From Candidatus Hydrogenedentota bacterium (GTDB lineage Bacteria > Hydrogenedentota > Hydrogenedentia > Hydrogenedentales > JAJRTN01): a stretch of DNA of 44,721 bases. Positions 5,951 through 41,463 of this stretch are shown here, one piece after another. Both the position numbers and the translations under genes were made by a program. Each line of letters starts with the position of its first letter. Positions within the stretch are counted from its first letter, which is position 1. Where the stretch lies: the NCBI GenBank assembly GCA_024278275.1, contig JAJRTN010000024.1:1-44721 (forward strand). The letters are read 5' to 3'. Under the pieces are notes generated by a model that was not told the DNA's origin, ran no database searches, and saw only the letters and a list, made by a program, of their open reading frames with translations.

Positions 5951-8074
5951 TCAACGGTGGCGTTGGCCGCGCAGCAGGGGCTCGTTTCGCCAGGCCGCCT
6001 CGGGGCCGAAACGCTTGATCACCGCCCCTTGCCCGGCGGGCCGTCCGCCGTAGAGACCGGCGACCAGCGAGGCAGAGCCAACACCGGCGAAGATAAGCAT
6101 GATGACGGCCCAGCGCAGGGCGTGCATGATCGGACCCCGGTAATTGGCACGACCCATGACGGGCACCTCCCGTCCCTCATGGGGAAGGAGGAGCACCAGT
6201 ACCGTTGCCAGAACCGCGTGCATGGCGATGACCCACTCCGTGATAAGCCGGTTTTCGGCGAAGTGAGGGAGCTGGCGTTCAAAGTTTCCCACCACCATCA
6301 CCCAAAGCAGCACAAGGAACAGCATCTGCCCACGCCCAAGGGGCTTTTCCGGCACCAACGCCACGGGCCGGACGAGATGACGTCCCATCACCAGGAGGAC
6401 GGCGATGGCCAGGGTGAAGAAGGCCAGGTTAAACCAGGTAAGCGTGCTGAAGGTGACGGACTTGAAGAGGGGCGCGCACAGGGATTCGGCCACCGCGCCT
6501 TCCTGGATCCACCGGGACACATTCTTGACCAGGTTCAGGTAGGGCACGGCAAGCAGGGTGAAAGCGGCGGCCAACGCCGTGAGGCCCCGTCCCCGCCGTG
6601 GATTATCCATGAGCCGTCCCTTGGAAGCGGCCAGAATACCCATGGTCACGGCCAGGCCGATGCCGTTGATGAAACCATAACTTTGCTCCATGACACTGTG
6701 CCAGTTCGCGCTCTGCCAATGGGCCCACGTGCCTGGGGCCACGCCGCGGGCGGGGTTCCCGGGCCAAATCATGATCAGCTTGAGCAGCACCGCGCCCGCG
6801 AAGCCCAGGCCGCCGAAGGTGCCGCACACCAGGGACGTCCAGATGACCGGGGCCAGTTGATTGCGATGCAACCACAGAAGGGCGCCTAGGAAGACGCCCA
6901 AAACACCCGCCCAGTTATCGCCGCGGGGCGGTGTCATGCGGAATCCCGCGCCCCCGAAACTAAGCAGCACGGGAAAAAGGAGAAAGCCCGCGAACCATCC
7001 CAAGGCCATGTGAAGAAACAGGGAAGCGCCATTGGCGAACCTGCCGTGGCGGTGGAAGTAGATGGCGATACCGACGGCCATGCCCAGTATCCAGCCCAGG
7101 TGCGTGGGGTATCGCAGAACGATATCGGGCCAGTTCGCCACAAGCAGATCTTCCACCGGAACGTGTTGGTCGGCGGCCATCCGGCGCGCCACTTCGCCGA
7201 GGCCCTGGTAGTGAACCAACCATCGGCGGAGGAAGGCCCCGCCCCCCAGGGCGATAAAGATACGCTGCAGGAAGTGACCGGCGTAGAAGCCCGCATAGGC
7301 ATACAGCACCAGCGCCGGATGGGTGATAAACAATCCCACGAGCAGTCCGCAGAGCACCAGCACCGTAATGGCCAGCGAATAGGAGGTCAGGATCGCCAGG
7401 AGGTAGCAGCCCGCGGCAAGAATGGCCAGCATGGCGATGGCGAGGCTGAGGGGGATGCGGACACGCATGCGGTTTACCAGGTCGTAAACACAGATCGCGG
7501 CCAACGCCACGAGGGCCTGCAACCAATCGCTGTCAAACCAGTACAGGGGGTTCTCATGCCGTGACCAGGTTCCATCGCCCACCGCGGCCCAGGCGTCGAG
7601 CCGGGGTTCGATGAGCAGGGCGAAGCCGGCCCAGGCGATAAGAACGAAAAAGAGCGGGCCGAGGATACGCAGGAGCCGATCCTGGTCCAAGACGGCGGGC
7701 AGTGCGGTGCCCGCGCCCCCCATGCCCGCCCACAGGAAACCAATGACATAGAGACAGAAAAAACCGTAGACCTGGCTGGGGAAATGACCGGACTGGGTGT
7801 AGGCGATGACGTGGCCGTAGGACATGGACCCGCCGAATCCCCAGGCCAAGGCGCCGAACAGGGCGAAAAAGGCCACACGTCGCCGCCAGTCTTCGCGGCC
7901 CGCCATGAGCGCCACGGTGATGCCGGCCAGGGCTCCCGGCACCATGGCACCGTATTCATGGCCGAAGTTACCCCGGATCCCCCAGCCGATGGACAAAGCC
8001 AGCCCGGTCAGAAGAAGCGCCCCGGGACCCAGGCCGCGCAAACCGTGAAACGTGCCGTCTTCGGTGCTGGTCAT
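5951..8074 (-). CDS. Large polytopic membrane protein, family not recognised
   Basis: Protein of 707 aa with well over a dozen hydrophobic segments and short loops, so an integral inner-membrane protein. The N-terminus is GLGPGALLLTGLALSIGWGIRGNFGHEYG; conserved-looking glycine-rich motifs include GWGIRGNFGHEYGAMVPG (around 30-47) and GFGGSMSYGH (around 79-88), with further charged residues inside predicted helices. I know of no transporter or enzyme family with these motifs. Such proteins appear as conserved hypotheticals near carbohydrate genes in related phyla, but that is recollection and not shown here. It stands alone: no tightly spaced neighbour. The ATG at 8074 has no strong Shine-Dalgarno sequence, so the start is moderately certain. 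Confidence 0.72.
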   Translation of the reverse strand: MTSTEDGTFHGLRGLGPGALLLTGLALSIGWGIRGNFGHEYGAMVPGALAGITVALMAGREDWRRRVAFFALFGALAWGFGGSMSYGHVIAYTQSGHFPSQVYGFFCLYVIGFLWAGMGGAGTALPAVLDQDRLLRILGPLFFVLIAWAGFALLIEPRLDAWAAVGDGTWSRHENPLYWFDSDWLQALVALAAICVYDLVNRMRVRIPLSLAIAMLAILAAGCYLLAILTSYSLAITVLVLCGLLVGLFITHPALVLYAYAGFYAGHFLQRIFIALGGGAFLRRWLVHYQGLGEVARRMAADQHVPVEDLLVANWPDIVLRYPTHLGWILGMAVGIAIYFHRHGRFANGASLFLHMALGWFAGFLLFPVLLSFGGAGFRMTPPRGDNWAGVLGVFLGALLWLHRNQLAPVIWTSLVCGTFGGLGFAGAVLLKLIMIWPGNPARGVAPGTWAHWQSANWHSVMEQSYGFINGIGLAVTMGILAASKGRLMDNPRRGRGLTALAAAFTLLAVPYLNLVKNVSRWIQEGAVAESLCAPLFKSVTFSTLTWFNLAFFTLAIAVLLVMGRHLVRPVALVPEKPLGRGQMLFLVLLWVMVVGNFERQLPHFAENRLITEWVIAMHAVLATVLVLLLPHEGREVPVMGRANYRGPIMHALRWAVIMLIFAGVGSASLVAGLYGGRPAGQGAVIKRFGPEAAWRNEPLLRGQRHR

Positions 8075-8212
8075 GCTCTTTTCCCATCGCGTGGAACCAT
8101 ACCCGTGCCGCTTGCGCGGGCGGCGTATAGCCTACACGATGGCCCTCGGGGAGAAGCAAGCCGCAGCACCACGGGCGTACCATTTGCAAAAGGGTGGCTT
8201 TCAATAATACCG

Positions 8213-8290
8213 TTACATACCAGGTGCTGGGACCGAACGCGGTCCTGCGGATGGTTCGTAAACAAATCCTTCATTTCGCAAATGCCTTCA
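8213..8290. repeat. Dispersed intergenic repeat, copy 1
   Basis: About 75 bp beginning ACATACCAGG, with the palindrome GGACCGAACGCGGTCC and ending ATTTCGCAAATGCC. A clearly homologous copy lies at 41746-41815 (GGACCGAAGGCGGTCC ... ATTTCGCAAAAGCC). It occupies the middle of the 386-bp gap 8075-8460, in which I see no gene. Confidence 0.6.
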
Positions 8291-8350
8291 CGGGGGTTGG
8301 TTGAAAAAATACTGATAGAGTACGGGGAGCTGGCGGGAACAGGGCTTATC

Positions 8351-8359
8351 TGCTATGAT
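8351..8359 (+). promoter_or_regulatory. Candidate extended -10 box for the oxidoreductase gene
   Basis: TGCTATGAT, an extended -10 (TGn-TATGAT) about 100 bp before the start at 8461. The matching -35 region (CTGGCG) is weak. Confidence 0.35.
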
Positions 8360-8460
8360 CCCGCGCAAGGATTTCCGACCTTCACGCCGCGCCGCCCCTC
8401 TCCATTTTTATTCGAAAAACACCGCGAAGATTCAGTTATTACAACCACGGAGAAAGTGAC

Positions 8461-9759
8461 ATGTCCCGCAACATTACCCGACGCGATTTTTTCAAAACGA
8501 CCGCGTTCAGCATGGCCGCCATGAAAGCCTTCCCGGCTATCGCCAAGACCGTTTCCCCCAATGAAAAACTCGACATCGCCATTGTAGGCATCGGCGGCCA
8601 GGGCAAGTCGAATTACAACGGGGTGCGCGGAGAAAACATTGTCGCGGTATGCGACGTGGATCTTGAACGCGCGGGTTCCGCATACCAGCAATTTGAGAAG
8701 TCGAAGCAATTCACGGATTTCCGCCGGATGCTGGACAAAGTACACAAGCACATCGACGCGGTCGTTATCAGCACGCCCGACCACACCCACTTCCATCCGG
8801 CCTACATGGCCATGGAATTGGGCAAACACGTTTATCTCGAAAAGCCCCTTGCCCACTCGGTGTGGGAAGTGCGCGCCCTTACCAACCTGGCCAAACGAAA
8901 AAAACTCACCACCCAGCTTGGTGTCCAACGCCACGTCAAGACAAACATGCATCGCGTGGTTGAGCTTATTCGGAGTGGCGCCATTGGCGAGGTCTCCGAA
9001 GTTTACAGTTGGGTAAGCAGCAACCGGGGCATGTACCCCTCCAAGGGCGCGGGCACGCCCGTCCCCGCTCATCTCGACTACGACCTCTGGCTTGGCCCCG
9101 TGGAATACATGCCCTATGACCCGAAGATCACGCCTTACGGCTGGCGCTTCTGGTGGGACTTCGGTACCGGCGAAGCGGGCAATTGGGGTTGCCACATCCT
9201 CGACATCCCCTACTGGGCCCTCGACCTGGATCACGCGACCCATGTCAGCGCCACCGGCCCGGAACCCGACCCCAAAATGACCATGCAGCAATTCTCCTCC
9301 ACCCTGGATTTTCCCGCAAAGGGCAATCGGCCCGCGGTTAAACTTCACTGGGGACAACACAAGGACGGTCCCGAAATCCTCAAGGAACTCAACCTGCCTT
9401 CGAGGGGCTACAATAACCTCTTCATCGGCAGCAAAGGTATGCTGCTCTGCGGCTTTGATCAACGGACCTTACTCCCCAAAGAGCAGTTCGCCGACTTCGA
9501 AGCGCCCAAGCCCTTCATCCCCGACTCGCCGGGCTTCCACAAGGAGTTCATTGACGCCTGTAAAGGTAACATGACCCCGCCCACCTGCAACTTCGCCTAT
9601 TCCGGCCCCATGACCGAGTCCATGCTGCTGGCCAATGTGGCCTACCGCAGCAAGTCCGGGTTCGATTGGGATTACAAGACCATGACCTGCAAAGCCACGC
9701 CCGAAGCGCAGGCGTTCATCAAGCCCACCTTCAAGAAGGGCTGGGAGATGAACATTTGA
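8461..9759 (+). CDS. Tat-exported Gfo/Idh/MocA-family oxidoreductase
   Basis: NAD(P)-dependent sugar or sugar-derivative oxidoreductase, probably acting outside the cytoplasm. Protein of 432 aa. The N-terminus NITRRDFFKTTAFSMAAMKA is a twin-arginine signal (R7-R8), common for this family in PVC-type bacteria. The Rossmann fold follows: IAIVGIGGQGKSN at 39-51 (GxGxxG variant) and the acidic strand end VCDVD; EKP at 127-129, the conserved lysine motif of the family, is intact in KHVYLEKPLAHS. The C-terminal domain contains GTGEAGNWGCHILDI, with the histidine expected near the active site. GGAG lies 8 nt before the ATG. It is monocistronic, and the substrate cannot be inferred. Confidence 0.9.
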   Translation: MSRNITRRDFFKTTAFSMAAMKAFPAIAKTVSPNEKLDIAIVGIGGQGKSNYNGVRGENIVAVCDVDLERAGSAYQQFEKSKQFTDFRRMLDKVHKHIDAVVISTPDHTHFHPAYMAMELGKHVYLEKPLAHSVWEVRALTNLAKRKKLTTQLGVQRHVKTNMHRVVELIRSGAIGEVSEVYSWVSSNRGMYPSKGAGTPVPAHLDYDLWLGPVEYMPYDPKITPYGWRFWWDFGTGEAGNWGCHILDIPYWALDLDHATHVSATGPEPDPKMTMQQFSSTLDFPAKGNRPAVKLHWGQHKDGPEILKELNLPSRGYNNLFIGSKGMLLCGFDQRTLLPKEQFADFEAPKPFIPDSPGFHKEFIDACKGNMTPPTCNFAYSGPMTESMLLANVAYRSKSGFDWDYKTMTCKATPEAQAFIKPTFKKGWEMNI

Positions 9760-9761
9760 TG

Positions 9762-9787
9762 CCTGGTTCCGGCTACGCCGGGTTAGG
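9762..9787 (-). repeat. Palindromic repeat family CCTAA..CCGGC-nnn-GCCGG..AACCAGG, copy 1
   Basis: On the minus strand CCTAACCCGGCGTAGCC followed by GGAACCAGG. Near-identical copies lie at 16798-16821 and 29443-29468; only the 3-nt loop and a few positions differ. This copy starts 2 bp after the oxidoreductase stop. Confidence 0.6.
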
Positions 9788-9855
9788 GGAAGGCGCATGT
9801 CCCTGGCGCCGCGGAGGGATTATTCAAATATCCTCTTCCCGCGGGCAAAAGAAAG

Positions 9856-9922
9856 GCCGGTGCGAACGGTACCACCACCGCATCAGCCATCATCGCCGCC
9901 AAAAGGAGCCGCTCGCACCGGC
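9856..9922. repeat. 14-bp inverted repeat upstream of rarA
   Basis: GCCGGTGCGAACGG (9856-9869) pairs with CCGCTCGCACCGGC (9909-9922) with one mismatch and a 39-nt loop. It may be a terminator or repeat remnant; no T tract follows. Confidence 0.4.
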
Positions 9923-9987
9923 GCTTGTGTGAAGAACATTCCGGCGGGCCGTCTCATTCCCCGGTCTTCCAGCTTGATCCAGGGTAT

Positions 9988-10017
9988 TTGCCCGGCATTG
10001 GGCGCAGGGGCTAGGAT
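9988..10017 (+). promoter_or_regulatory. Candidate rarA promoter, implying a near-leaderless mRNA
   Basis: TTGCCC, an 18-nt spacer and TAGGAT. The -10 box ends 6 bp before the ATG at 10024, so transcription would begin at or next to the start codon. No Shine-Dalgarno sequence precedes that ATG, which fits a leaderless message. Confidence 0.4.
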
Positions 10018-10023
10018 ATCCCC

Positions 10024-11361
10024 ATGGTCGAGGATCTCTTCGAGAATGCGGCGGCGGCACGTCTCCGCAGGGAAGCACCCCTCGCACGGCGGGTGGCGCC
10101 GCGGACGCTGGACGAGCTGTTGGGGCAGGATCACATCCTGGGACGTGGCAAGATCCTGCGTCGTGCCATCGAGGCGGACCGGGTTACATCGCTCATTCTT
10201 TACGGCCCCCCCGGATGCGGCAAGACCGCCTTGGCCCGGATTATCGCCATGCAGACGAAATCCGCCTTCGAGCCATTGAACGCCGTGACTTCGGGGGTGC
10301 GCGAACTCCGTGAACTCATCGCTATCGCGAAGCAACGCCGGATCCATGAACAGCGGCGGACCATCGTGTTCGTGGACGAAATACACCGCTTCAACCGGGC
10401 ACAGCAGGACGCGCTCTTGCCGGACGTGGAAAACGGCGGCATTACCCTCATCGGGGCGACCACGGAAAACCCCTTCTTTTCGGTGGTGGCGCCTTTGCTG
10501 TCCCGTTCGCAGATCTTCGAGTTCAAGCGGCTGGAGGAAGCGGCACTGATCCAACTCATGCGCCGCGCGTTGAAACACGAAGCACTGGGGCTGGACGACT
10601 TCAAGATCGTGGTGGATGATGACGCTTTGGCCCATATCGCCACCTACGCCGAGGGCGACGTGCGGCGCTGCCTGAACGCGCTGGAGGTGGCCCTGCTTAC
10701 CACGCCGCCCGAGGAAAAGGTCATCCATGTCACCATCGAGGTGGCGCAGGAGTCCATTCAGAAAAAGCTGCTCCACTATGACGGCACGGGCGACGGGCAC
10801 TACGACGCGGCCTCGGCCTTCATCAAGAGCATGCGCGGGAGCAATCCCGATGCGGCGCTCTACTGGATGGCCCGCATGTTGGAAGCGGGGGAGACGCCTC
10901 GCTTCGTGGCCCGGCGCATCTGTATCGCGGCTTCCGAGGAGGTGGGCAACGCCGACCCCATGGCGCTGGTGGTGGCCACATCGGCCTGGCAGGCCTGCGA
11001 GTTCATCGGCATGCCCGAGGCGCGCATCATCCTGGCACAGGCGGCCACCCACGTGGCCTGCGCGCCCAAGAGCAACGCCGCCTATCGCGGTATCGACGCG
11101 GCCCTGGCGGACGTTCGCGAAGGCAAGACCATCGAGGTGCCCACGCACCTGCAAGACACGAGCTACCGCGGCGCGAAACGGTTGGGCCGGGGCGAAGGCT
11201 ACCAGTATGCCCACGGCTTCGAGGAAGGCTACGTTCCCCAGGACTACGGCGTGATCCGGGGAACCTACTACCAGCCATCGGAGCGCGGGCATGAAGCATC
11301 GTTCAAGGAACGGATGGCGCGTTTTGATGAACGGGACAGGGAAGCGCGGGACCGGAAATAA
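10024..11361 (+). CDS. rarA: Replication-associated recombination protein A (AAA+ ATPase)
   Basis: Clamp-loader-like AAA+ ATPase (RarA/MgsA/WRNIP1) acting at stalled replication forks in the cytoplasm. Protein of 445 aa, the usual length. The N-terminus DLFENAAAARLRREAPLARR matches the standard RarA start, fixing the ATG. Walker A GPPGCGKT at 61-68, Walker B VDEIHRFN at 117-124, sensor 1 GATTENP at 144-150 and the arginine finger in LLSRS (R161) are all present. The C-terminal tetramerisation part contains LYWMARMLEAGETPRFVARR and EGYQYAH. Two small envelope-protein genes follow at 15 nt and then almost no spacing, an odd partnership for a DNA-repair ATPase. Confidence 0.96.
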   Translation: MVEDLFENAAAARLRREAPLARRVAPRTLDELLGQDHILGRGKILRRAIEADRVTSLILYGPPGCGKTALARIIAMQTKSAFEPLNAVTSGVRELRELIAIAKQRRIHEQRRTIVFVDEIHRFNRAQQDALLPDVENGGITLIGATTENPFFSVVAPLLSRSQIFEFKRLEEAALIQLMRRALKHEALGLDDFKIVVDDDALAHIATYAEGDVRRCLNALEVALLTTPPEEKVIHVTIEVAQESIQKKLLHYDGTGDGHYDAASAFIKSMRGSNPDAALYWMARMLEAGETPRFVARRICIAASEEVGNADPMALVVATSAWQACEFIGMPEARIILAQAATHVACAPKSNAAYRGIDAALADVREGKTIEVPTHLQDTSYRGAKRLGRGEGYQYAHGFEEGYVPQDYGVIRGTYYQPSERGHEASFKERMARFDERDREARDRK

Positions 11362-11376
11362 CGGGAGGGAATCGAC

Positions 11377-11601
11377 ATGAGCGTTCCAGTGGCCCTATTC
11401 TTTCTATGCTTCATCTTGGTGTTGCTGGCCAATACGGCCTGGCTGGGCATGGCCCTGCTGAATCTCGTGCTGGACACGACACGTGAAACGGCCCGCGAGA
11501 GTACGCGCAATACAAAGACGAAAATCGTTGCCAGCGCGGTTGTCGAGTTCCTCATGCTGCTGGTTATAGGGATGGTTGCACGCATCATGGGGAGTACCTG
11601 A
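11377..11601 (+). CDS. Small two-helix membrane protein
   Basis: Protein of 74 aa: helix about 4-30, a polar charged middle (DTTRETARESTRNTKTK), and a second helix about 50-70. GGGAGG sits 7 nt before the ATG, 15 nt after the rarA stop. It is followed within 1-2 nt by the thioredoxin-like gene, so the three probably share a transcript. No recognised family. Confidence 0.7.
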   Translation: MSVPVALFFLCFILVLLANTAWLGMALLNLVLDTTRETARESTRNTKTKIVASAVVEFLMLLVIGMVARIMGST

Positions 11602-11602
11602 C

Positions 11603-12205
11603 GTGTCCGAGAGCAAGAAACGGCCTTTCCTGCGTGGATGCCTGGTGGGGCTGGTGCTGGGCGTACTGGGTGGCCCGGTATTGTTCGTCGCGGCCCTTCT
11701 TGCCGCGTACCAACTTTTTCCGGAGCCCTTCACCCGGCTCATGGGGGGACAACTCCGGCCGCCCGCCATCACTCGGGACCTACGGGCCGCCTATGATTGG
11801 TCCGTGAAAACCCTCGACGGCGAAACCTTCGACCTGGCGGAAACGCGGGGGAAGGCCGTGTTCCTGCACTTCTGGAGTCCCGATTGCCCCCAATGCCGGG
11901 CGGAACTGGATTCACTCAACGGCCTCCATGACGCGGTGAAAGACGACGAGCGGATTGCCTTTGTGGCCGTGGCCCGGAGTGATTTCGACAAGCTGCCCGA
12001 CTACGTGGCGCGGGGCGTGACGAGGTTCCCCGTCTACACTTTCGAAGGCGCCTTGCCCGAGCCCTACGCCCAAAAAGGGGTCCCCGTGAGTTTCCTCATC
12101 AGCCCGGAAGGCGAGGTGGTCTTCAAGCAAGAAGGCGGCGCCAAGTGGGACGACGAGGGACCGGTGAATTACCTGAAATCACTGGCGGCCCAGGTGGGGG
12201 AATAA
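11603..12205 (+). CDS. Membrane-anchored thioredoxin-fold protein (TlpA/ResA-like)
   Basis: Probable periplasmic thiol-disulphide protein. I choose the GTG at 11603 (200 aa), which follows GGAG by 8 nt and begins right after the previous stop; an ATG at 11576 would overlap that gene by 26 bp and lacks a site. One N-terminal helix (about 12-38) anchors it. The thioredoxin domain spans about 65-195: VFLHFWSPDCPQCRAEL carries the redox motif C-P-Q-C, and GVPVSFLISPEGEVV carries the cis-proline loop. AlkylHP-peroxidase-like members exist in the same superfamily, but CxxC favours TlpA/ResA. Its reductant and targets are unknown. Confidence 0.85.
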   Translation: MSESKKRPFLRGCLVGLVLGVLGGPVLFVAALLAAYQLFPEPFTRLMGGQLRPPAITRDLRAAYDWSVKTLDGETFDLAETRGKAVFLHFWSPDCPQCRAELDSLNGLHDAVKDDERIAFVAVARSDFDKLPDYVARGVTRFPVYTFEGALPEPYAQKGVPVSFLISPEGEVVFKQEGGAKWDDEGPVNYLKSLAAQVGE

Positions 12206-12214
12206 AGGCACGGA

Positions 12215-12266
12215 CGAACACGGACACACACGAACCCGCCGGGAAACATGAAGTTGTCCGTGTTCG
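12215..12266. terminator. Hairpin between convergent genes (CGGACACGGA-type repeat)
   Basis: CGAACACGGACA (12215-12226) and its exact complement TGTCCGTGTTCG (12255-12266), in the gap between the convergent genes ending at 12205 and 12279. It could stop transcription in both directions. It belongs to the repeat type also seen at 13122-13152 and 16888-16956. Confidence 0.45.
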
Positions 12267-12278
12267 TTCTCGCCCCTC

Positions 12279-13031
12279 TTACGTCGCCGTCCGACCGATG
12301 TTTTCCCCGATGAAGACGTCTATTAACTCGGGATCGAAATGTTTGCCCCGCTCGCTCAGGAGATACTCGACGGCGCTCTCGTGGGTATTGTGTGTTTTCC
12401 GGTAATGACGGGGGCTGGTCATGGCGCAGTAAACATCCAGGATCTTCATGATGCGGGCAAAACGGGGAATCTCGTCACGCTCGATGCCGTCGGGGTATCC
12501 CGTGCCGTCGTAGCATTCATGATGGCGATGAACAATGTCGGCCACGCCCGTGCAGAAGGAGCGCTCCTCGAGCAGTTTCACACCAAGGCAGGTGTGTTGC
12601 TGGAGCAGGATCCACTCGTCATAGGTCAGGACCTTGTTTTTTAGGAGTACTTCATTCGAGATGGACAGCTTCCCAATGTCACGCAGAAGCGCGCCCCGCT
12701 CCAGAAGTATCTGCTCCTCGCTGTTCAGACCGAGGGCCCTGGCGAAGCGCGTGGCATGGTCGCACACGCGACGCGATCCCCCCAAGGCGATTCCCTCGCG
12801 GCAATCGATGGCATCGGCGAGGAGGCCCAAGAGCGCTTCATGGGTGGCGGCGGCACGGAGAATGGCCTGCGGGGCATCCTCCGACACGCCATCGACGACC
12901 AGCGCGGATACCAGGCCCGAATCGATCTGGCCGGACTCGATCCGCGAAACCACGACCTCGTCGGGCGCGGCCGACCGTAATTGCGCCTCGATTTGCGCGC
13001 TTTCTCCCACGATGCCAATCTGTTTCAGCAT
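12279..13031 (-). CDS. HD-GYP domain protein with degenerate HD motif
   Basis: Protein of 250 aa. The N-terminal 60 residues resemble a shortened receiver-like fold (QIGIVGESAQIEAQL) without phosphorylation residues; the HD-GYP region covers about 64-245. The signature HRHHECYDGTGYPDG (168-182) is intact, but the HD dyad reads R117-D118 (LLRDIGKL) instead of H-D, and the usual upstream histidine in HSxRV is replaced (GSRRV, 85-89). These are metal ligands, so phosphodiesterase activity is probably lost and the protein may only bind c-di-GMP or partners. Compare the intact paralogue at 4295-5830. GAGGAG lies 9 nt before the ATG. It is convergent with the thioredoxin-like gene. Confidence 0.85.
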   Translation of the reverse strand: MLKQIGIVGESAQIEAQLRSAAPDEVVVSRIESGQIDSGLVSALVVDGVSEDAPQAILRAAATHEALLGLLADAIDCREGIALGGSRRVCDHATRFARALGLNSEEQILLERGALLRDIGKLSISNEVLLKNKVLTYDEWILLQQHTCLGVKLLEERSFCTGVADIVHRHHECYDGTGYPDGIERDEIPRFARIMKILDVYCAMTSPRHYRKTHNTHESAVEYLLSERGKHFDPELIDVFIGENIGRTAT

Positions 13032-16619: not shown

Positions 16620-16626
16620 TTCGGAC

Positions 16627-16648
16627 TTGGTGGGCCAAGGCCCACCCA
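16627..16648. repeat. Direct repeat copy 1 (palindromic GTGGGCC-AAGGCCCAC)
   Basis: CTTGGTGGGCCAAGGCCCAC plus CC. A second copy with one change (GGCT for GGCC) lies at 17060-17081. The core is self-complementary. The pair brackets the repeat-rich relic region. Confidence 0.5.
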
Positions 16649-16692
16649 AACCGGTACCGCGCCCTTCGTGCCGTGGATGTGGGAATCGACAT

Positions 16693-16762
16693 GATTTACA
16701 GGATGAACAAGATTGCTTTGCCTTTTCTTCTCTTCCATCTTGTCCATCTTGTTAATCCTGTC
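16693..16762. repeat. 'atttacaggatgaacaagat' inverted-repeat element
   Basis: GATTTACAGGATGAACAAGA (from 16693) and ATCTTGTTAATCCTGTC (16746-16762) form imperfect arms around a pyrimidine-rich centre. Sequences of this wording recur in intergenic DNA of many bacterial phyla (recollection). Confidence 0.45.
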
Positions 16763-16797
16763 GAGTTCCACGGGTCTTGCAACAAACGGTCCTTCAC

Positions 16798-16821
16798 CCT
16801 AACCCGGCTTGGCCGGAACCA
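16798..16821 (+). repeat. Palindromic repeat family CCTAA..CCGGC-nnn-GCCGG..AACCA, copy 2
   Basis: CCTAACCCGGCTTGGCCGGA followed by ACCA; see 9762-9787 and 29443-29468 for the other copies. Confidence 0.55.
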
Positions 16822-16887
16822 AAAAGTGTAGCCGTTCACGGCTCATTTATGAACTTCAATCACCTTGCCTTCAAGGTACTTATTTTT

Positions 16888-16956
16888 ACCACGGAACACA
16901 CGGAATACTCGGACATTAATACTCCTTTGGTCCGTGTTTTCTGTGTTTTCCGTGGT
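16888..16956. repeat. Inverted repeat ACCACGGAAnACAC...GTGTTTTCCGTGGT
   Basis: ACCACGGAACACACGGA begins the left arm (16888-16913) and the right arm ends TCTGTGTTTTCCGTGGT (16931-16956). It lies immediately beyond the stop codon of the GxxExxY remnant, as a 3' hairpin would. Confidence 0.5.
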
Positions 16957-16964
16957 TCTATTCT

Positions 16965-17059
16965 TCATCTGATTATGCTCTCGATAATCGCTTTGGGATA
17001 ATGCCCAAAGTTCACCAGCAATCCAAGTTTCAACAGCGTTTCGCCGTCAAGGTTTCCGT
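16965..17059 (-). pseudogene. 3' remnant of a GxxExxY-family gene
   Basis: Reading the minus strand from 17059, the frame gives DGNLDGETLLKLGLLVNFGH followed by YPKAIIESIIR and a TGA at 16965-16967. The string LLxLGLLVNFG plus a short tail matches the C-terminus of GxxExxY proteins, small PD-(D/E)XK-superfamily proteins that are widespread in PVC and FCB bacteria. Only about 31 codons remain, and an in-frame stop lies just upstream, within the 17060-17081 direct repeat. The rest of the gene is missing. Confidence 0.6.
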
Positions 17060-17081
17060 CTTGGTGGGCCAAGGCTCACCC
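17060..17081. repeat. Direct repeat copy 2
   Basis: Matches 16627-16648 at 21 of 22 positions. Its end coincides with the stop codon of the minus-strand gene at 17081-19069 and with the broken end of the GxxExxY remnant. Confidence 0.5.
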
Positions 17082-19116: not shown

Positions 19117-19307
19117 CTTATGTGGCACAGCCGCCCCCGGCTGTGGGCCGTACTCGGCCCGAACCGGGGGCTGTGGAACCCGCAGGGTTTTATCTCCGTT
19201 CCTACGGATTCTTGACCTCCGCGAGCAACCGCCTTGAATTGGAACGAAAGTTCAACTTGAATTAGGGCCTATCGGCCCCACAGCCGAGGGCGGCTGTGCC
19301 ACATAAG
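19117..19307. repeat. 190-bp element with about 33-bp terminal inverted repeats (MITE-like)
   Basis: CTTATGTGGCACAGCCGCCC starts the left end (19117-19149) and GGGCGGCTGTGCCACATAAG closes the right end (19274-19307); the arms differ at only one or two positions. A further internal GGGGGCTGTGG unit is present. It fills the gap between two same-strand genes and contains no frame of note. Confidence 0.6.
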
Positions 19308-33923: not shown

Positions 33924-33956
33924 CCCATGGGAGCCGGGCTGACGCCGGCTCATGGG
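33924..33956 (+). terminator. Hairpin downstream of the CLCA-like gene
   Basis: CCCATGGGAGCCGG (33924-33937) pairs with CCGGCTCATGGG (33945-33956) apart from a 2-nt bulge. No T tract follows. It lies 45 bp after the stop. Confidence 0.4.
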
Positions 33957-34047
33957 CCGCCGCTCCATACGTGCCCCTCTGCGATTTGCCGGGTTGACCC
34001 ACGGCCCCGGGCATGGGAAAATGGGCGTGCCCTGCGAGGAGGTCCCC

Positions 34048-35331
34048 GTGAAGATCCACATGCCCTATGGCGACGAGACCCTTGAAGCTTCCCTGGAAGG
34101 CGTTTGCCCTCTGGACACCCTCGATATAGCCGACACGCCGGCGCTTCCCGACGTGACCGCCGCGGCCCGGGCGGGCTTCCTCGACCCTACCGGTCCCGTG
34201 AAGCCTTTGCCCGAGATCGTTCGACCCGGCGAACAGGTGGCCATCGTGGTTTCGGATTCCTTTCGGACCACCCGCGTCGAACGGATACTGCCCCTGTTAC
34301 TCGACACCCTGCGGCACGCCGGCATCCGTGAAGAAGACACCTGTTTCGTGTTCGCCACCGGTTCGCACCGGGGCCCCACGGAAGACGAAAAGGCCGTCAT
34401 TCTCGGGGAGGCGGTGTACCGGCGCTTCAAAGACCGCGCCTTCTCCCACGACCCCGACGACCCGGCGAATCTTGTCTGCCTGGGGGAGACCTCACGGGGC
34501 ACGCCCGTCGAGATTAACCGCCGTGTCCACGAGGCGGACCGGGTGATCGCCACGGGCGCCGTGGTGCTCCACTACTTCGGCGGATTCGGCGGGGGGCGCA
34601 AATCCATCGTGCCCGGCCTGGCCTCCAAGCGGACCATTGCCCACAACCACGCACGAAACCTGCACGCCACGGAAGACCGGCTCGACCCGGCGGTACGCAT
34701 CGGCGCACTCGATGGAAACCCCGTGGCCGAAGACATGCTGGAAGCGGCTTCGCTGGTACACGTCGATTTCATGATCAACACCGTGCTCAACCGTGACGGC
34801 GAGATTGCCGGGATCTTCTGCGGTCACCTGGACCAGGCCCACCGCGCGGCCTGTGCCTTTGCCCGAACCCTTTTCACGGTCGAGATCCCCGAACAGGCCG
34901 ACCTCGTGATCGCGTCGGCGGGCGAGGCCAAGAACTTCATCCAAAGTCACAAGGCCCTGTTCAACGCCTTCCAGGCCATGAAACCCGGGGGGAGAATCGT
35001 CTTTCTCACCCGCTCCCCCGAGGGCTTCGGAGGCAACAAGTTCGCCCAATGGCTGGCCCTGCGCACCCCCGGGGCCATCATCCGCGCACTGCGGGAGGAT
35101 GCCGAGATTAACGGCCAAACCGCCCTCTCCACCGTCGAGAAAGCCCCCTCCACGCTCTTTGTCACGGAGCTTTCCAACGAAGCCGTGACCCTCCTCGGCG
35201 GTCGGAAGGCCCCGGGTTTCCAGGCGGCCCTGGACCTGGCGAAAACGGAGCTTGCCGCGGCGGGTATTACCCGGCCCACCGCCTATCTCATGCCCTCCGC
35301 CAGCTACAGCGTACCCTTCCATCCCGCGTAA
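34048..35331 (+). CDS. larA: LarA-family (DUF2088) nickel-dependent racemase-like protein
   Basis: Cytoplasmic racemase/epimerase-like enzyme related to lactate racemase LarA. Start at GTG 34048 (427 aa, KIHMPYGDETLE), 5 nt after GAGGAGG. Landmarks: VSDSFRTTRVERILPLLL near 69-86, FATGSHRGPTEDE near 104-116 (the His of the nickel-pincer environment), HYFGGFGGGRKSIVPGLAS near 172-190 (the lysine bound to the cofactor in LarA) and the following H in TIAHNHARN. No larB/C/E cofactor genes are adjacent, and many DUF2088 proteins act on other 2-hydroxyacids, so the substrate is open. The last codons and stop lie inside a 28-bp repeat that recurs 5.4 kb downstream. Confidence 0.85.
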   Translation: MKIHMPYGDETLEASLEGVCPLDTLDIADTPALPDVTAAARAGFLDPTGPVKPLPEIVRPGEQVAIVVSDSFRTTRVERILPLLLDTLRHAGIREEDTCFVFATGSHRGPTEDEKAVILGEAVYRRFKDRAFSHDPDDPANLVCLGETSRGTPVEINRRVHEADRVIATGAVVLHYFGGFGGGRKSIVPGLASKRTIAHNHARNLHATEDRLDPAVRIGALDGNPVAEDMLEAASLVHVDFMINTVLNRDGEIAGIFCGHLDQAHRAACAFARTLFTVEIPEQADLVIASAGEAKNFIQSHKALFNAFQAMKPGGRIVFLTRSPEGFGGNKFAQWLALRTPGAIIRALREDAEINGQTALSTVEKAPSTLFVTELSNEAVTLLGGRKAPGFQAALDLAKTELAAAGITRPTAYLMPSASYSVPFHPA

Positions 35332-35345
35332 ACCGTTTGACTTGC
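35318..35345 (+). repeat. 28-bp perfect direct repeat, left copy (candidate attachment site)
   Basis: Begins TCCATCCCGCGTAAACC and ends GTTTGACTTGC. It contains the final codons and TAA of the LarA-type gene. Identical over 28 bp to 40780-40807. Confidence 0.85.
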
Positions 35346-35428
35346 TTGCTGCGCTCGGGTCTTGATACGCGCCATCCCGTATGTTCGGATATACCGAAAA
35401 GTGTCTTCCTGTAAATGACCCCGTATTA

Positions 35429-35457
35429 TTGATCTGTTCGGCCTGCCCGGGTAAACT
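35429..35457 (+). promoter_or_regulatory. Candidate promoter of the helicase-nuclease gene
   Basis: TTGATC, a 17-nt spacer and TAAACT, about 135 bp before the ATG at 35593 and inside the putative cassette, so the gene carries its own promoter. Confidence 0.35.
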
Positions 35458-35592
35458 GATGATGGTTTTTTTGGTCGAATCGTGGATGAAAAAGCTCCGG
35501 GAAAGGGGGATGGATGAAAAAGGTTGGCAGGCTCTCGGCGAAACAACCTTGCGCTAATTATTCAATATGGTCTTCTCGGAGTTTTTCCCATT

Positions 35593-38500
35593 ATGAATGA
35601 TTTGCAGAACAAGGGGCACAACGAAAAAGCGGTTCGTTTGGTTGAATACCTTCTTCGCTTGGCATCTCTGCGCACCAAGACAATTCGCGATATTCAGGAG
35701 TACAAGGACGAAAAAGGGCAAGTCCTCTGGATTTCTTCCATCCCCCGGGAAAAAGGCTGCTTCACGCAGGCGTGGGGGCGTGACGCGGCATTTGATCCAG
35801 ATGTTTGGGTAGAAATTCAGAATGAAAATGAACCCGACTTACCCAGTGTGCCTGACACGTGTGAAGACTGGGTTGAAAGAAGCTCGCTACGCAACAAGGC
35901 TGATCTGCCTGAACTCCGGCCTACAATCACGATAGAGGTTGAGAATCCACATTGGGGGGAAGGGAACAACGTTTCTCCCGCCAAACAGATCGGCCAATCG
36001 CTGGAGGTTACAAGTACAGATTGGAAGGAAGGGAGCGAGGAATCAAGATACCTCTCGCAGACCAAGAGCCTTGAAGATCATCCGGAAGTCCAACAGGCTT
36101 GGAACCGTTACGTTGAAGACCAATGGCTTCCCTGGATGGAGGAACACAATCGATGGGAAAGCGTTCATAAGCTTTACTCTGAATTGTTCGCTATCCACCA
36201 GGAGCAGATTCGACTTGGCGAGGAATATGAACTTGTTCTTGGCCTTGGTCTATTGACCTGGAAGACGCCCACGGGCCAGCACGTATGTCGCCACCTGATT
36301 GTTGCCAACGCCCTTCTTGAATTTGAGGCGCGTTTGAAAAAGTTCACGGTCCGACCAATGCCGGATGGCGCAATCCTTCGCCCCGAACTCGACATGCTGG
36401 ACATTGAGGAATGTCCGGCACGATCCGAGGAAACAGCAAAGTCTGCACTGCGCAACGCTAATGACGATCCGTGGGAAAAGGTTTGTATTGAAGGTGTATT
36501 GCAAGCCTTGGTGCATTCAATCAGTTCACAGGGCGAATATGACGACACTTTGGAAAAGAAAGGGGTTCGGGCATCCGACAAACCCGTTGTTGAATACGCG
36601 CCGGCCCTTATACTCCGCAAACGTTCCGGCAAGGGTCTCACCGAGACCCTGAAGAGAATCAAGATTAGCGTCGAACAGGGTGGAGAGATACACCCGGAAT
36701 TCGCAGATCTTGCGGAGATTCGTCCGAAACAGGATGCCGACCCGGGTAACGAGTACCACGATCCCGGAGATACGAGCGGGGGGTTCGACGGCGAGATTTT
36801 CTTTCCCAAGCCATCGAATAAAGAACAGCGGCGCATCGTAGACAAGCTTCGGGTGGCCAGCGGTGTTCTTGTGCAGGGCCCACCCGGAACAGGAAAATCT
36901 CACACCATTGCGAATCTGATCTGTCACCTGTTGGCAACTGGCCAGCGAACACTTATCACGGCCAAGACACCGCGCGCGCTTCGGGTACTTGAAAAACTCA
37001 TTCCCGAAGAATTGCGGCCCCTTTGTATCAACCTTCTTGGCAATGGTCCGAATGAAAGACAGTCCCTTGAGTCCAGCGTCGACGGTATTCTCCGGAAGAA
37101 TAATGCATGGAATGAAGACAAAGCCAAAGAAGAGTGCGAGGACCTTAAGGCGCGACTCCGAAAACTTCGTGAAGAAAAGACCGAGTTGGATCGAAGACTT
37201 CGCGCCATCCGGGAATCGGAAACTCATTCTCAATCCGTGGCGGAGGGAACCTATAAAGGCACGGCCGCCCGAATCGCGGAAGCCGTCAATCGTGACAGAA
37301 GCGCCTATGAATGGTTCACGGATATTGCGGCACTGGATCAGCCCTGCCCTGTTTCCGAAACCAATCTAAGACGCGTTCTTGAGGAACTCCGCCATTTCAC
37401 GCCCGAGAAGCGAGAAGAACTGAACCTTCTTTGGCCCGGAGCATTGCCGTCGGCGATCAAGGTAAACAGCCTTTTTGAACAACAAGAAAAAGCCGGACAG
37501 AATGAAAAGCTGTGTTTGGAAAAGGGTGCGGAAGAGCAGATCGCCAAGGCTTTGATACCCGAGTCTCCTGTTTGTGGTTCATGTCGTGCATTATTAGTAT
37601 TACAAGATGATAGCAATTCTTCAACCGATTCGGAGCAGTTTTGTTCCAAGTGCGGAACGCAAAACCGAGTTCGAGCCTATGTCAGTCGTGAAAGCGTTCG
37701 TGCCGCGTATGATGCGCTTCGCGCCGTTCAATTGAAGCTCCGGCAAATATCGTCGAAAAGTGCTCCCTGGATGATTAATGCACTTCGCGATGTTCTTGTT
37801 GGCAGTCCTGCTTCATGGCGCAAGATCCTTCATTCTACCAGAGCTATAATCGCCCCGATTGAAAAACGGGTGGCGCTTACGGACAATGCTAATCTACACT
37901 TCCCGGATGATATGGATATACAGACGTTGTTCGCAGATGCCTGCAAGCTGAAAGAGCACCTGCAAAATGATGGAAAATTGGGCTGGGGTCCATTTCGTCC
38001 AAGAGTGGTCAAGGACTGCATACGGATAATAAAATCAGTCCGAGTTGATGGCCGGCCCTGTTCTACTCTTGACGCGGTTTCCACCCTGGCGGACGTGCTA
38101 CATGTCCGCATCGAGTTTAAGAAAGCATGGAGCTTTTGGATGGGGGTGCGTGCCCAAAGGACCCAAGGTCCTTACACGTTGCAGCTTCATGCACTTAAAG
38201 CGCTGTACGATAGCCTTGAAAGCGTCTTGTCGATCAAGGGACTCATCGAGAAGTGCCGGGAGACGATGCGGCGGTGTCTTGTGGCTGACGAGCCCGTGTG
38301 GTCCGATGAATCTCAGGTTGAGAAAACAGTCGCGTCCTTTCGTCTTGCACTTGTCTTTTATGAAAAACGCCGTGCTTACAAGAAAATAAAAGATATTGAA
38401 GCCCTCGTATCCAGTATCGCCGATGGGAGTGATGCGCACCCAATAGCGAGCGAACTGCTTGAGGCAATCCGTCAACGCGATAAGGATGGCTATGCCCAAG

Positions 38501-40692
38501 CTATGGATAAAGTTCAAACTCTTCGCTTAGAGCGCGAGCGTGTTCAAAAGCTGGATGAATACCTCTTGGAATTGGCCGCTGATCTTCCATCATTGGTGGA
38601 GGATTTGAAGCGAAATCCGGAGAGTGCCTGTTGGGATGAGCGCCTGTCTATGATTAACGATGCCTGGCACTGGGCACAGGCACGACATTGGATCGAAGAA
38701 TACATTCGAAAAGAGGATCTTCCCGCACTCGCCCAGCGGGCGAAGCAGATTGAGGACGAGATCAACGCCACCATTGCGAAGCTTGCATCACTCCGTGCCT
38801 GGTCTTACTGCTTTTCGCGTCTTGAAGAAGGTCACCGCCGAAACATGAAGGCTTGGCAAAAAAATGTCAGCAAGATAACCAAGTCTGGTACAGGGAAACA
38901 GGATTATTTTCACCGAAAAGAGGCCCAGAAGAATCTGAACAATTGTCGTTCGGCGATCCCAGCGTGGGTAATGCCGCTACACCGCATCTGGGACACGGTG
39001 CCGCCAGAGCCTGGCATGTTTGATTTGATCATCATTGACGAGGCCTCACAGTGCGGATTCGAAGCACTTCCGCTGTTCTTTATGGCCAAGAGGATTTTGA
39101 TTGTTGGGGATGACAAGCAAATCAGCCCAGATGCGGAAGGCGTCAAGTTAAACACGGTAACTCAACTGATTAACCAATTTCTAAACGACTTCGAGCAAAA
39201 GTCATCGTTTAACATCACTCGAAGCCTTTTTGACCAAGGGGAACTCAGGTATAGCGCTAGCCAAATTGTCTTGCGTGAGCATTTCCGCTGTATGCCTGAG
39301 ATCATACGTTTCAGTAGTGATCATTGGTATACACCGCCAGGTTTGACCCCATTGCGACAGTACGGGCCAAACCGCTTGCCGCCGATTGAACATGTTTTTG
39401 TCAAAGGCGGCTATCGAGAAGGACAAAATAACCATGTGGTCAACCGACCGGAGGCCGATGCCGTCGTCGAAAAGATCATCGAATTATGTAAAGATAAACG
39501 TTACTCGGAAAAGACAATGGGGGTCATCATTCTGCAGGGCAATGCACAGGCGGGCTTGATTGAAGGCCAATTGCTTGAGCGACTCGGTGCGGAGGAAATG
39601 GAGAAGCGGCGTCTTATCTGCGGAAACCCCTACAGTTTTCAGGGAGACGAGCGCGACATTATATTCTTGTCGATGGTGGCCGCCAGTAATGAGCGGATCG
39701 GCCCGCTCACCAAAGCCGCAGACGAGAGACGGTTCAATGTAGCGGCCAGCCGTGCCCGAGACCAGATGATTCTGTTCCATTCCGTAACAAGTGATGACCT
39801 GAGCGCGGCATGCCTCCGACGGAAATTACTTGAGTTTTTTGAGAATTTGAAACCGCAAGAAATCGCCGGGATTGGCCGAGATGTGCTTGAACGACACGCA
39901 TCCCAAGATAATCGGAGTATTCTGAGTCCCCCCTCGCCTTTTGATAGTTGGTTCGAGGTTGATGTCGCTCTGGCATTGCTACGCAAGCATTTCGTTGTTC
40001 TCCCTCAGTATGAAGTGGCGGGCAAACGAATTGACCTCGTGGTGGAGGGCGGGCAAGCACGATTGGCGGTCGAGTGTGATGGGGATCACTGGCATGGTGC
40101 CGACCGATACGAAGAGGACATGGAGCGGCAACGGCAGTTGGAACGTTGCGGCTGGGAGTTCTTTCGGGTCAGCGAAGCCGCCTTCTATTCGAATCAAGAG
40201 GAAGCATTGGCCCCTCTTTGGCGAATGTTGGAAGATCGGGGTATTCTGCCTGATAATGCAACAGTTTATGAGAACGCAATATCCGGCGAGCAAAATGGCA
40301 ACGGCCATGAATCCGACGAAAATTCCGATGATGAAGTGGAGGAAGATGATAATGAGGAAGATGTCCTCGAATCGTCTTCCGACAGTGGCACCCCCAATAC
40401 CCAGTCCCGGCGTCACCCGGAAGAAGTCTCGTCTCAAGAGATTTCGGAGGCAATTATCCGCGCCTTGCGAAAACGCCCGAATAATTCATGCACATTACAT
40501 TCCTTGACAGGACGCGTCCTCAAAGAAGTGGGCGTACTCACACGTGGCAACCCGCGCGCGAAGTTTGAGAAGCGCGTACGACGCATGGTTAGATCGCTGT
40601 GCGAAAAGGATCAAATTGAGGAGTACAAGGCCAAGAATAAGCGCGTTCGGCTGTTGGAATCGTCTTATCAGGAGTCCCTTTTTCCCCATTGA
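35593..40692 (+). CDS. SF1 helicase-nuclease (Vsr-like PD-(D/E)XK), Hhe-like putative anti-phage protein
   Basis: Protein of 1699 aa from ATG 35593; an in-frame TTG at 35524 would add 23 residues. Unrecognised N-terminal region to about 400 (VEYLLRLASLRTKTIRDIQE, VLWISSIPREKGCFTQAWG). SF1 helicase: Walker A GPPGTGKS at 429-436, Walker B IIIDEAS with D1149-E1150, GDDKQ at 1172-1176, YSFQGDERD near 1347 and RRFNVAASRARDQ near 1379-1391. Between the two RecA lobes lies a long insert, partly coiled coil, with a zinc ribbon (C661, C664, C684, C687). Nuclease domain about 1450-1550: E1455, D1481 and E1494-C-D1496 in LAVECDGDHWHG, Vsr/DUF559-like. An acidic low-complexity linker (about 1570-1600) precedes a winged-helix-like C-terminus. 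Helicase plus Vsr-type nuclease in one chain recalls Hhe anti-phage proteins, but DUF4011 is not seen. Confidence 0.85.
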   Translation: MNDLQNKGHNEKAVRLVEYLLRLASLRTKTIRDIQEYKDEKGQVLWISSIPREKGCFTQAWGRDAAFDPDVWVEIQNENEPDLPSVPDTCEDWVERSSLRNKADLPELRPTITIEVENPHWGEGNNVSPAKQIGQSLEVTSTDWKEGSEESRYLSQTKSLEDHPEVQQAWNRYVEDQWLPWMEEHNRWESVHKLYSELFAIHQEQIRLGEEYELVLGLGLLTWKTPTGQHVCRHLIVANALLEFEARLKKFTVRPMPDGAILRPELDMLDIEECPARSEETAKSALRNANDDPWEKVCIEGVLQALVHSISSQGEYDDTLEKKGVRASDKPVVEYAPALILRKRSGKGLTETLKRIKISVEQGGEIHPEFADLAEIRPKQDADPGNEYHDPGDTSGGFDGEIFFPKPSNKEQRRIVDKLRVASGVLVQGPPGTGKSHTIANLICHLLATGQRTLITAKTPRALRVLEKLIPEELRPLCINLLGNGPNERQSLESSVDGILRKNNAWNEDKAKEECEDLKARLRKLREEKTELDRRLRAIRESETHSQSVAEGTYKGTAARIAEAVNRDRSAYEWFTDIAALDQPCPVSETNLRRVLEELRHFTPEKREELNLLWPGALPSAIKVNSLFEQQEKAGQNEKLCLEKGAEEQIAKALIPESPVCGSCRALLVLQDDSNSSTDSEQFCSKCGTQNRVRAYVSRESVRAAYDALRAVQLKLRQISSKSAPWMINALRDVLVGSPASWRKILHSTRAIIAPIEKRVALTDNANLHFPDDMDIQTLFADACKLKEHLQNDGKLGWGPFRPRVVKDCIRIIKSVRVDGRPCSTLDAVSTLADVLHVRIEFKKAWSFWMGVRAQRTQGPYTLQLHALKALYDSLESVLSIKGLIEKCRETMRRCLVADEPVWSDESQVEKTVASFRLALVFYEKRRAYKKIKDIEALVSSIADGSDAHPIASELLEAIRQRDKDGYAQAMDKVQTLRLERERVQKLDEYLLELAADLPSLVEDLKRNPESACWDERLSMINDAWHWAQARHWIEEYIRKEDLPALAQRAKQIEDEINATIAKLASLRAWSYCFSRLEEGHRRNMKAWQKNVSKITKSGTGKQDYFHRKEAQKNLNNCRSAIPAWVMPLHRIWDTVPPEPGMFDLIIIDEASQCGFEALPLFFMAKRILIVGDDKQISPDAEGVKLNTVTQLINQFLNDFEQKSSFNITRSLFDQGELRYSASQIVLREHFRCMPEIIRFSSDHWYTPPGLTPLRQYGPNRLPPIEHVFVKGGYREGQNNHVVNRPEADAVVEKIIELCKDKRYSEKTMGVIILQGNAQAGLIEGQLLERLGAEEMEKRRLICGNPYSFQGDERDIIFLSMVAASNERIGPLTKAADERRFNVAASRARDQMILFHSVTSDDLSAACLRRKLLEFFENLKPQEIAGIGRDVLERHASQDNRSILSPPSPFDSWFEVDVALALLRKHFVVLPQYEVAGKRIDLVVEGGQARLAVECDGDHWHGADRYEEDMERQRQLERCGWEFFRVSEAAFYSNQEEALAPLWRMLEDRGILPDNATVYENAISGEQNGNGHESDENSDDEVEEDDNEEDVLESSSDSGTPNTQSRRHPEEVSSQEISEAIIRALRKRPNNSCTLHSLTGRVLKEVGVLTRGNPRAKFEKRVRRMVRSLCEKDQIEEYKAKNKRVRLLESSYQESLFPH

Positions 40693-40779
40693 TCAGACGA
40701 ATGGGGGGTAGTTCTCTCCCGAGTCCATTGGGGAACTCCAGGGGATGCTCCCCGGGAAACTTCCAAGCAGACCTCGGTC

Positions 40780-40807
40780 TCCATCCCGCGTAAACCGTTT
40801 GACTTGC
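40780..40807 (+). repeat. 28-bp perfect direct repeat, right copy
   Basis: Identical to 35318-35345. Immediately before it is the small palindrome AGACCTCGGTCT. Its last bases supply the TTGACT -35 hexamer of the downstream operon promoter. Confidence 0.85.
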
Positions 40808-40828
40808 AGGGGATGCCTTTGTTAGACT
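40799..40828 (+). promoter_or_regulatory. Promoter of the yceD-rpmF-plsX-fabD-fabG operon
   Basis: TTGACT (40799-40804), an 18-nt spacer and TAGACT (40823-40828). It is the best-scoring promoter by eye in the window. The -35 lies in the 28-bp repeat and the -10 just outside it. Transcription from here excludes the TTG at 40804 and ATG at 40813 as starts of the next gene. Confidence 0.55.
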
Positions 40829-40878
40829 CGCCCGGATGTTTTCCCATGCAGGGCTTCCACACGCAAGGTCCGGTCGCC

Positions 40879-41463
40879 GTGAACAGCCTCCGCATTCCCA
40901 TAGTTTCAATCGGCGCGGATGGTCTGTGGATTGAAGAGACGGTGGATCTCGCGTGTTTTCGCCCCGTGGACGGGCAATCGCTGCCCCTGGAGCGTCTGGG
41001 TCTGTCCGGTGATCTTTCGATCCTGGGTGAAGATGAGCTGCTTTTCCGGGGTTCGGTGAAGGGTGTTTTTTCCCGGCCCTGCGACCGCTGCCTCGCGGCG
41101 GCGGTATTTCCCTTCGAGGTGGATGTCATCTGGCGCTTCATTGCCGCGGCGCCGGGTGTGGCGCCGGAGGAAGGGGAGGACGTGGTGCTGGCCGCCGAGG
41201 AACTTAACGACCCGGCCATGGATTACAGTTTTCACGGGACCGAGGTTGATTTGACCCCGGCCCTTTGGGAGGAGGCGGAGACGGCCCTTCCCGCGAAGTT
41301 TGTATGCCGTGCGGATTGCCGGGGCCTGTGCCCGGTGTGTGGTGGCAACCTTAACGAGACGCAGTGCGCCTGCGACACGGCGCCCGAAGCGGAAATCAAC
41401 CCGGGCTTGGCGGGACTGAAGGACTTGTTCCCCGATTTGCCCGAACAGCGTGCAGAGGAGTGA
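40879..41463 (+). CDS. yceD: DUF177/YceD family protein
   Basis: Small conserved protein encoded before rpmF in most bacteria and thought to act in ribosomal RNA or ribosome biogenesis. I choose the GTG at 40879 (194 aa, NSLRIPIVSIGADGLWI) since earlier starts lie within or before the promoter; ATG 40846 is possible. Family markers: FRGSVKGVFSRPCDRCLAAA (the CDRCL motif, about 58-77), the acidic middle, and the C-terminal zinc-like cluster CRADCRGLCPVCGGNLNETQ followed by C-A-C, then GLAGLKDLF. It is followed by rpmF after 6 nt. Confidence 0.88.
   Translation: MNSLRIPIVSIGADGLWIEETVDLACFRPVDGQSLPLERLGLSGDLSILGEDELLFRGSVKGVFSRPCDRCLAAAVFPFEVDVIWRFIAAAPGVAPEEGEDVVLAAEELNDPAMDYSFHGTEVDLTPALWEEAETALPAKFVCRADCRGLCPVCGGNLNETQCACDTAPEAEINPGLAGLKDLFPDLPEQRAEE

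What the first reader, a model, noticed from the sequence alone, without database searches (positions are those of the whole stretch)
35318..40807. Single-gene defence-like cassette between perfect 28-bp direct repeats at the 3' end of larA
Seen: two identical 28-bp repeats enclose one AT-richer 5.1-kb helicase-nuclease gene; the left copy contains the larA stop codon, so the gene end is left intact. Known: many integrative elements use gene 3' ends as attachment sites and leave direct repeats. Inference: a minimal cassette that moves a defence gene without its own recombinase.
Basis: partly seen in the sequence, partly recalled or inferred. Interest (0 to 1): 0.85.

Follow-up and report, generated by a model that had tools for sequence, protein, structure and literature searches.

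The report
Foreign defence gene between perfect repeats
A bacterium from a little-studied phylum carries one large, recently acquired, probably anti-virus gene that was inserted between two housekeeping genes and is bracketed by two identical 28-base copies of the target; a close relative in another phylum sits in an independent, equally bare insert, while other relatives travel as integron cassettes or phage cargo, so the gene clearly moves, but what inserted it here is unknown.

Summary
Two identical 28-bp repeats (35318-35345, 40780-40807) bracket one 5.1-kb gene and occur nowhere else in the 5.35-Mb genome. In ten of 29 order relatives examined larA is followed within 43-181 bp by yceD with no insert, so the insert is derived. 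The repeat holds the larA stop and the -35 box of the yceD promoter, so both neighbours stay intact. GC is 51% against 62%. The gene (UPF1-like helicase plus MTES_1575 nuclease) is mobile. Its two closest sampled relatives (Nitrospirota, Planctomycetota; sister in the tree) and four others end in attC-like sites; four of those six genomes encode an integron integrase. Three copies are phage cargo; a distant one ends a tRNA-Ala island with its own integrase. The Planctomycetota copy lies in a second bare insert with unrelated, unique 38-bp repeats. Most likely this is an att-type integration whose recombinase is gone or acted in trans. That is not shown: the two cases share no repeat motif or ends. 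Staggered-break capture or transposition with a long target duplication remain open.

The parts
33952..35331 (+). larA-like gene (lactate racemase family), left neighbour, intact to its stop codon
   Evidence: Pfam Lar_N E=1.5e-57; matches in 56 of 60 relatives
35318..35345 (+). Left copy of the 28-bp direct repeat TCCATCCCGCGTAAACCGTTTGACTTGC; contains the larA stop codon and TTGACT
   Evidence: Exact repeat; two copies in the whole genome
35346..35592 (+). Left non-coding end of the insert (247 bp); no terminal inverted repeat, no homologue among related loci
35593..40692 (+). SF1 (UPF1-like) helicase with MTES_1575 PD-(D/E)xK nuclease, 1699 aa (ATG start; 1722 aa from TTG 35524); candidate anti-phage gene
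   Evidence: Pfam MTES_1575 4.5e-27, AAA_12 3e-17, AAA_11 4.8e-16; PADLOC PDC-S37 9.7e-56 and NCBIfam ProA 6.1e-58, partial; catalytic motifs present
40693..40779 (+). Right non-coding end of the insert (87 bp); not an attC site
40780..40807 (+). Right copy of the 28-bp direct repeat; supplies the -35 box of the yceD promoter
40799..40828 (+). yceD promoter TTGACT-N18-TAGACT; the -35 box lies inside the repeat
   Evidence: the same kind of promoter lies in front of yceD in ten relatives
40804..41463 (+). yceD (DUF177), right neighbour (ORF from the first possible start; the true start is probably further in)
   Evidence: Pfam YceD 6.4e-23

Best explanation
A foreign 5.4-kb DNA holding a single helicase-nuclease gene was inserted into the larA-yceD junction, and 28 bp of target now stand on both sides. 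Shown: the insert is derived, foreign in composition, and leaves larA and the yceD promoter intact; the gene's lineage is mobile by several vehicles. Inferred: the 28-bp copies are attL and attR of an integrative element joined by site-specific (tyrosine-recombinase type) recombination at a gene 3' end, and what we see is its bare form, with only the cargo left or with the recombinase acting from elsewhere. Inferred: the protein is an anti-phage helicase-nuclease.
For: Exact unique repeat at a gene 3' end. Ten relatives without the insert. Foreign GC and GC3. A related gene (37% identity) is the last gene of a canonical 13.2-kb island between 49-bp tRNA-Ala repeats with its own integrase, 288 bp from the repeat; losing the rest of such an island would give the arrangement seen here. 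A second bare single-gene insert with 38-bp unique repeats occurs in G060. The copies nearest the window are followed by attC-like sites, so the lineage is used to travelling as a single gene.
Against: No recombinase or remnant of one in the insert. No shared att motif or ends with the second case. The target is not conserved DNA such as a tRNA: the larA-yceD spacer differs in every relative. The genome's tyrosine recombinases are XerC, XerD, one phage-like gene and two fragments, none linked to the site. Only one insertion is known for this site. Two independent inserts both trimmed to one gene would be a coincidence if both are decayed islands.
Confidence: 0.45

Rival explanations
1. Capture of a linear foreign DNA fragment in a staggered double-strand break: the ends were filled in, which duplicated 28 bp here and 38 bp in the Planctomycetota case. 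No recombinase was ever involved, and selection for defence kept the gene.
For: Repeats differ in sequence and length between the two cases and the ends share nothing. The Planctomycetota insert carries an attC-like site internally plus unrelated flanking DNA on both sides, as a random fragment would. No terminal inverted repeats.
Against: Both inserts hold exactly one gene with under 300 bp on either side, which random fragments would rarely give. End-joining proteins were not searched for.
Confidence: 0.22
2. Transposition by an unlinked transposase that makes long target duplications of variable length, as reported for IS1549 and IS1634 (8-514 bp; PMC2266710).
For: Long, perfect duplications of different length at unrelated targets.
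Against: No terminal inverted repeats and no shared ends. No related copies of the ends elsewhere in the genome.
Confidence: 0.1
3. The gene entered as an integron cassette and its attC site has since been lost; the repeats arose from integrase action at a secondary site.
For: The two closest homologues carry attC-like sites, and four of six attC-bearing genomes encode IntI.
Against: No attC in the window, no integron integrase in the genome, and cassette insertion is not known to duplicate 28 bp (own knowledge).
Confidence: 0.1
4. The repeats are chance or a dispersed repeat family and the gene is an old resident.
For: The genome has REP-like palindromes, one of which resembles part of the left end.
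Against: The 28-mer is unique, GC3 is foreign, relatives lack the gene at this place, and no other such repeat exists in 1.07 Mb.
Confidence: 0.02

Closest known systems
Integrase-bearing genomic islands and phage defence elements at gene 3' ends (for example the tmRNA islands of PMC12595487; here L090 at tRNA-Ala)
   Same: Defence-like cargo between direct repeats at a gene end; a related gene is the last gene of one such island
   Different: Here there is one gene, no integrase, and a target that is not an RNA gene and not conserved in DNA sequence
Integron gene cassettes carrying anti-phage genes (Science 2025 eads0768 and eads0915; Nat Microbiol 2025 10:724, as cited in PMC12444791)
   Same: A single gene as the mobile unit; six close homologues have attC-like sites
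   Different: The window copy has no attC, its genome has no integron integrase, and it is bracketed by a 28-bp target repeat
IS1549 and IS1634 insertion sequences (PMC2266710)
   Same: Long target duplications of variable length
   Different: No transposase and no terminal inverted repeats in this insert
PDC-S37, ProA and Hhe helicase-nucleases
   Same: SF1 helicase followed by a nuclease domain; the C-terminal half aligns with these families
   Different: Only partial matches, far below the curated cut-offs of ProA and Hhe (196 against 1500 and 141 against 2000 bits)

Membership tests
Integrative element with att repeats | Identical direct repeats at both ends that include part of the target | tested here: met
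Integrative element with att repeats | Carries or is served by a site-specific recombinase | tested here: inconclusive
   None in the insert; none of the genome's tyrosine recombinases can be tied to the site. Service in trans cannot be excluded and serine recombinases were not searched
Integrative element with att repeats | Uninserted chromosomes carry one copy of the site | tested here: inconclusive
   Ten order relatives lack the insert, but the spacer is too diverged to compare 28 bp; no genome of the same family is held
Integron gene cassette | attC site next to the gene | tested here: not met
   The right flank shows no core sites and folds no better than shuffles; attC-like sites are found in six homologues
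Integron gene cassette | Integron integrase in the genome | tested here: not met
   TIGR02249 absent from G000 (96% complete), present in four of six attC-bearing genomes
Transposon or insertion sequence | Terminal inverted repeats and transposase | tested here: not met
   No inverted repeats at the insert ends; only one gene, not a transposase
ProA or Hhe (NCBIfam) | Curated score cut-off | tested here: not met
   196 against 1500 bits and 141 against 2000 bits
SF1 helicase with MTES_1575 nuclease | Domains and catalytic motifs | tested here: met
   Domains over Pfam cut-offs; GPPGTGKS, IIIDEASQ, GDDKQ, RFNVAASRA and RIDLVVE..AVECDGD present
Anti-phage defence system | Protects against phage | not testable with these tools
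   Needs a plaque assay

The most novel reading that the evidence does not exclude
A class of minimal single-gene inserts exists in which defence genes with no recombinase of their own are integrated, probably by a factor in trans, at unrelated targets with long perfect duplications of variable length (28 and 38 bp seen so far), as an alternative route for genes that elsewhere move as integron cassettes.
Probability: 0.15. Interest if true: 0.8.

Novelty: new variant of a known kind. Interest (0 to 1): 0.5.

Why it matters
How defence genes jump one at a time between distant bacteria is poorly understood outside integrons and large islands. Here one gene lineage is seen in four settings: attC-type cassettes, phage cargo, a tRNA island, and bare inserts between unique long repeats. 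The two bare inserts make the question testable, because each predicts an exact resealed site and a circle of known sequence. A helicase-nuclease of about 1,600-1,700 residues is also large for a gene cassette (own knowledge).

Tried and rejected
Shared ends or shared repeat motif between the window and L076: alignments no better than shuffles. Decayed HTH_17 gene in the left end (an intact one precedes the phage copies L145 and L146): not supported, p=0.17. attC in the right end: none. Rfam RNA at the insertion site: none; for L076 only a sub-threshold match. The 38-bp target of L076 as a widely conserved RNA gene: only one relative, G576, has it clearly, over 72 bp that begin at the repeat's first base. 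L063's long repeats belong to a local palindromic repeat family, not a clean insertion repeat. The 650-bp repeats around the G012 copy are diverged and end near a contig edge, so were set aside. L100's repeat is low-complexity. The 28-mer in viral contigs: no match. Terminal inverted repeats: none. The resemblance of 28 bp to the length of a dif site was considered and not pursued, since the sequence does not look like one (own knowledge, not tested).

Full report
Observation. The two 28-bp copies TCCATCCCGCGTAAACCGTTTGACTTGC are exact at 35318-35345 and 40780-40807. They are the only two copies in the 5.35-Mb genome, even allowing three mismatches. I fetched about 1.07 Mb of the genome: apart from this pair, no exact two-copy repeat of 21 bp or longer lies 3-15 kb apart; the others are coding duplications, tandem repeats or multi-copy palindromes. 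In a test of 45 homologous loci, with mismatched upstream/downstream pairs as null (524 pairs, highest score 14), the window scored 28.

What is inserted. One gene of 1699 codons fills the insert. Pfam gives UPF1-like SF1 helicase domains and an MTES_1575 nuclease. All expected catalytic motifs are present and conserved in nearly all homologues. The nearest described defence families are PDC-S37, ProA and Hhe, matched only in part and, for the two with curated cut-offs, far below them. Solved structures with sequence similarity include UPF1, Sen1, SMUBP-2 and DNA2. Insert GC is 51.3% against 62.3%; GC3 is 0.54 against 0.72-0.85.

The target. The left copy holds the larA stop codon. Both copies hold TTGACT, and in the right copy it forms the -35 box of TTGACT-N18-TAGACT in front of yceD. 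The phylum search covered 68 genomes, none in the same family as the window's. In ten of 29 larA loci of order relatives, yceD follows larA after 43-181 bp with the same kind of promoter and no insert. The insertion is therefore derived, and the duplication preserves both neighbours. The spacer DNA differs in every relative, so an exact one-copy empty site could not be shown.

The gene's other homes. Homologues at about 55-68% identity occur in Nitrospirota, Planctomycetota, Pseudomonadota, Chlorobiota, Myxococcota, Zixibacteria and other Hydrogenedentota. Six of them (L063, L064, L068, L074, L076, L159) are followed by attC-like sites whose sequences align over their length. Two fold significantly better than shuffles and one marginally; L063, L076 and L068 do not, and L068 has a damaged core. 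Four of the six genomes encode an integron integrase by TIGR02249; the window's genome, G060, the L068 genome and two other relatives do not. In the tree the window is sister to L063 plus L076 with support 97/85; L108 is frameshifted and its position is not trusted. Three copies (L121, L145, L146) lie beside what I read as a phage head-morphogenesis gene, two of them on IMG/VR contigs and with an intact HTH_17 gene upstream. A distant copy (L090, 37%) is the last gene of a 13.2-kb island between 49-bp tRNA-Ala repeats with its own integrase and a Prim-Pol replication protein.

A second case. In G060 (L076) the gene, with its attC-like site, lies between two copies of a 38-bp repeat that occur nowhere else in that genome, period 4612 bp. 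The insert holds this one gene. Neither its repeat nor its ends resemble those of the window, and the genome has no integron integrase. Among about 20 close homologues these are the only two clean cases.

Mechanism. The anatomy fits attL and attR of an integrative element reduced to its cargo, and L090 shows what a full form could look like. It fits less well in that there is no recombinase, the target is unconserved, and the two cases share no motif. Capture of a linear fragment at a staggered break would explain unrelated repeats of different length but not why both inserts hold exactly one gene. IS1549 and IS1634 show that duplications of 8-514 bp are possible by transposition (PMC2266710), but this insert has neither inverted repeats nor a transposase. 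I give 0.45 to the att reading, 0.22 to break capture, and 0.10 each to transposition in trans and to a lost attC.

Novelty. Anti-phage genes in integron cassettes and in repeat-bracketed islands are known (PMC12444791, PMC12595487). New here, as far as I could find, are this helicase-nuclease lineage as cassette cargo of about 5 kb, and two independent bare single-gene inserts between long unique repeats. A general new mobility class is possible but unproven.

Noticed in passing
L074 around 7,900-12,900 (Chlorobaculum parvum MAG): A lone 4.9-kb cassette, from GTTAGGC to GGGCGTTATC, holding the homologue sits between two ordinary chromosomal genes (the right one reads as metK), outside any visible array, although the genome encodes an integron integrase.
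   Followed up: partly
L145 and L146, directly upstream of the homologue: In these phage-borne copies a small excisionase-like HTH_17 gene (Pfam 8e-19) stands directly before the helicase-nuclease gene and may be a second component of the system.
   Followed up: partly
G576:C1:828462-828533 (L225) and L076: A 72-bp stretch that begins at the first base of the 38-bp repeat of L076 is conserved at 89% in one Planctomycetota relative, in unrelated surroundings.
   Followed up: partly
window 16620-17081, 19117-19307 and elsewhere in the genome: Dispersed palindromic repeats such as GTGGGCCAAGGCCCACC (up to 16 counts of an 18-mer over both strands in 1.07 Mb) and CTCGTTCCCACGGTCCTCCGTGGGAA.
   Followed up: no
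window 35366-35385 and L127, L128: GCGCCATCCCGTATGTT in the left end of the insert resembles half of a palindromic repeat found elsewhere in the genome.
   Followed up: no
L120 4325-4973 and 10185-10834 (G012): The homologue in another Hydrogenedentota genome lies between two 650-bp direct copies of a diverged non-coding repeat.
   Followed up: no
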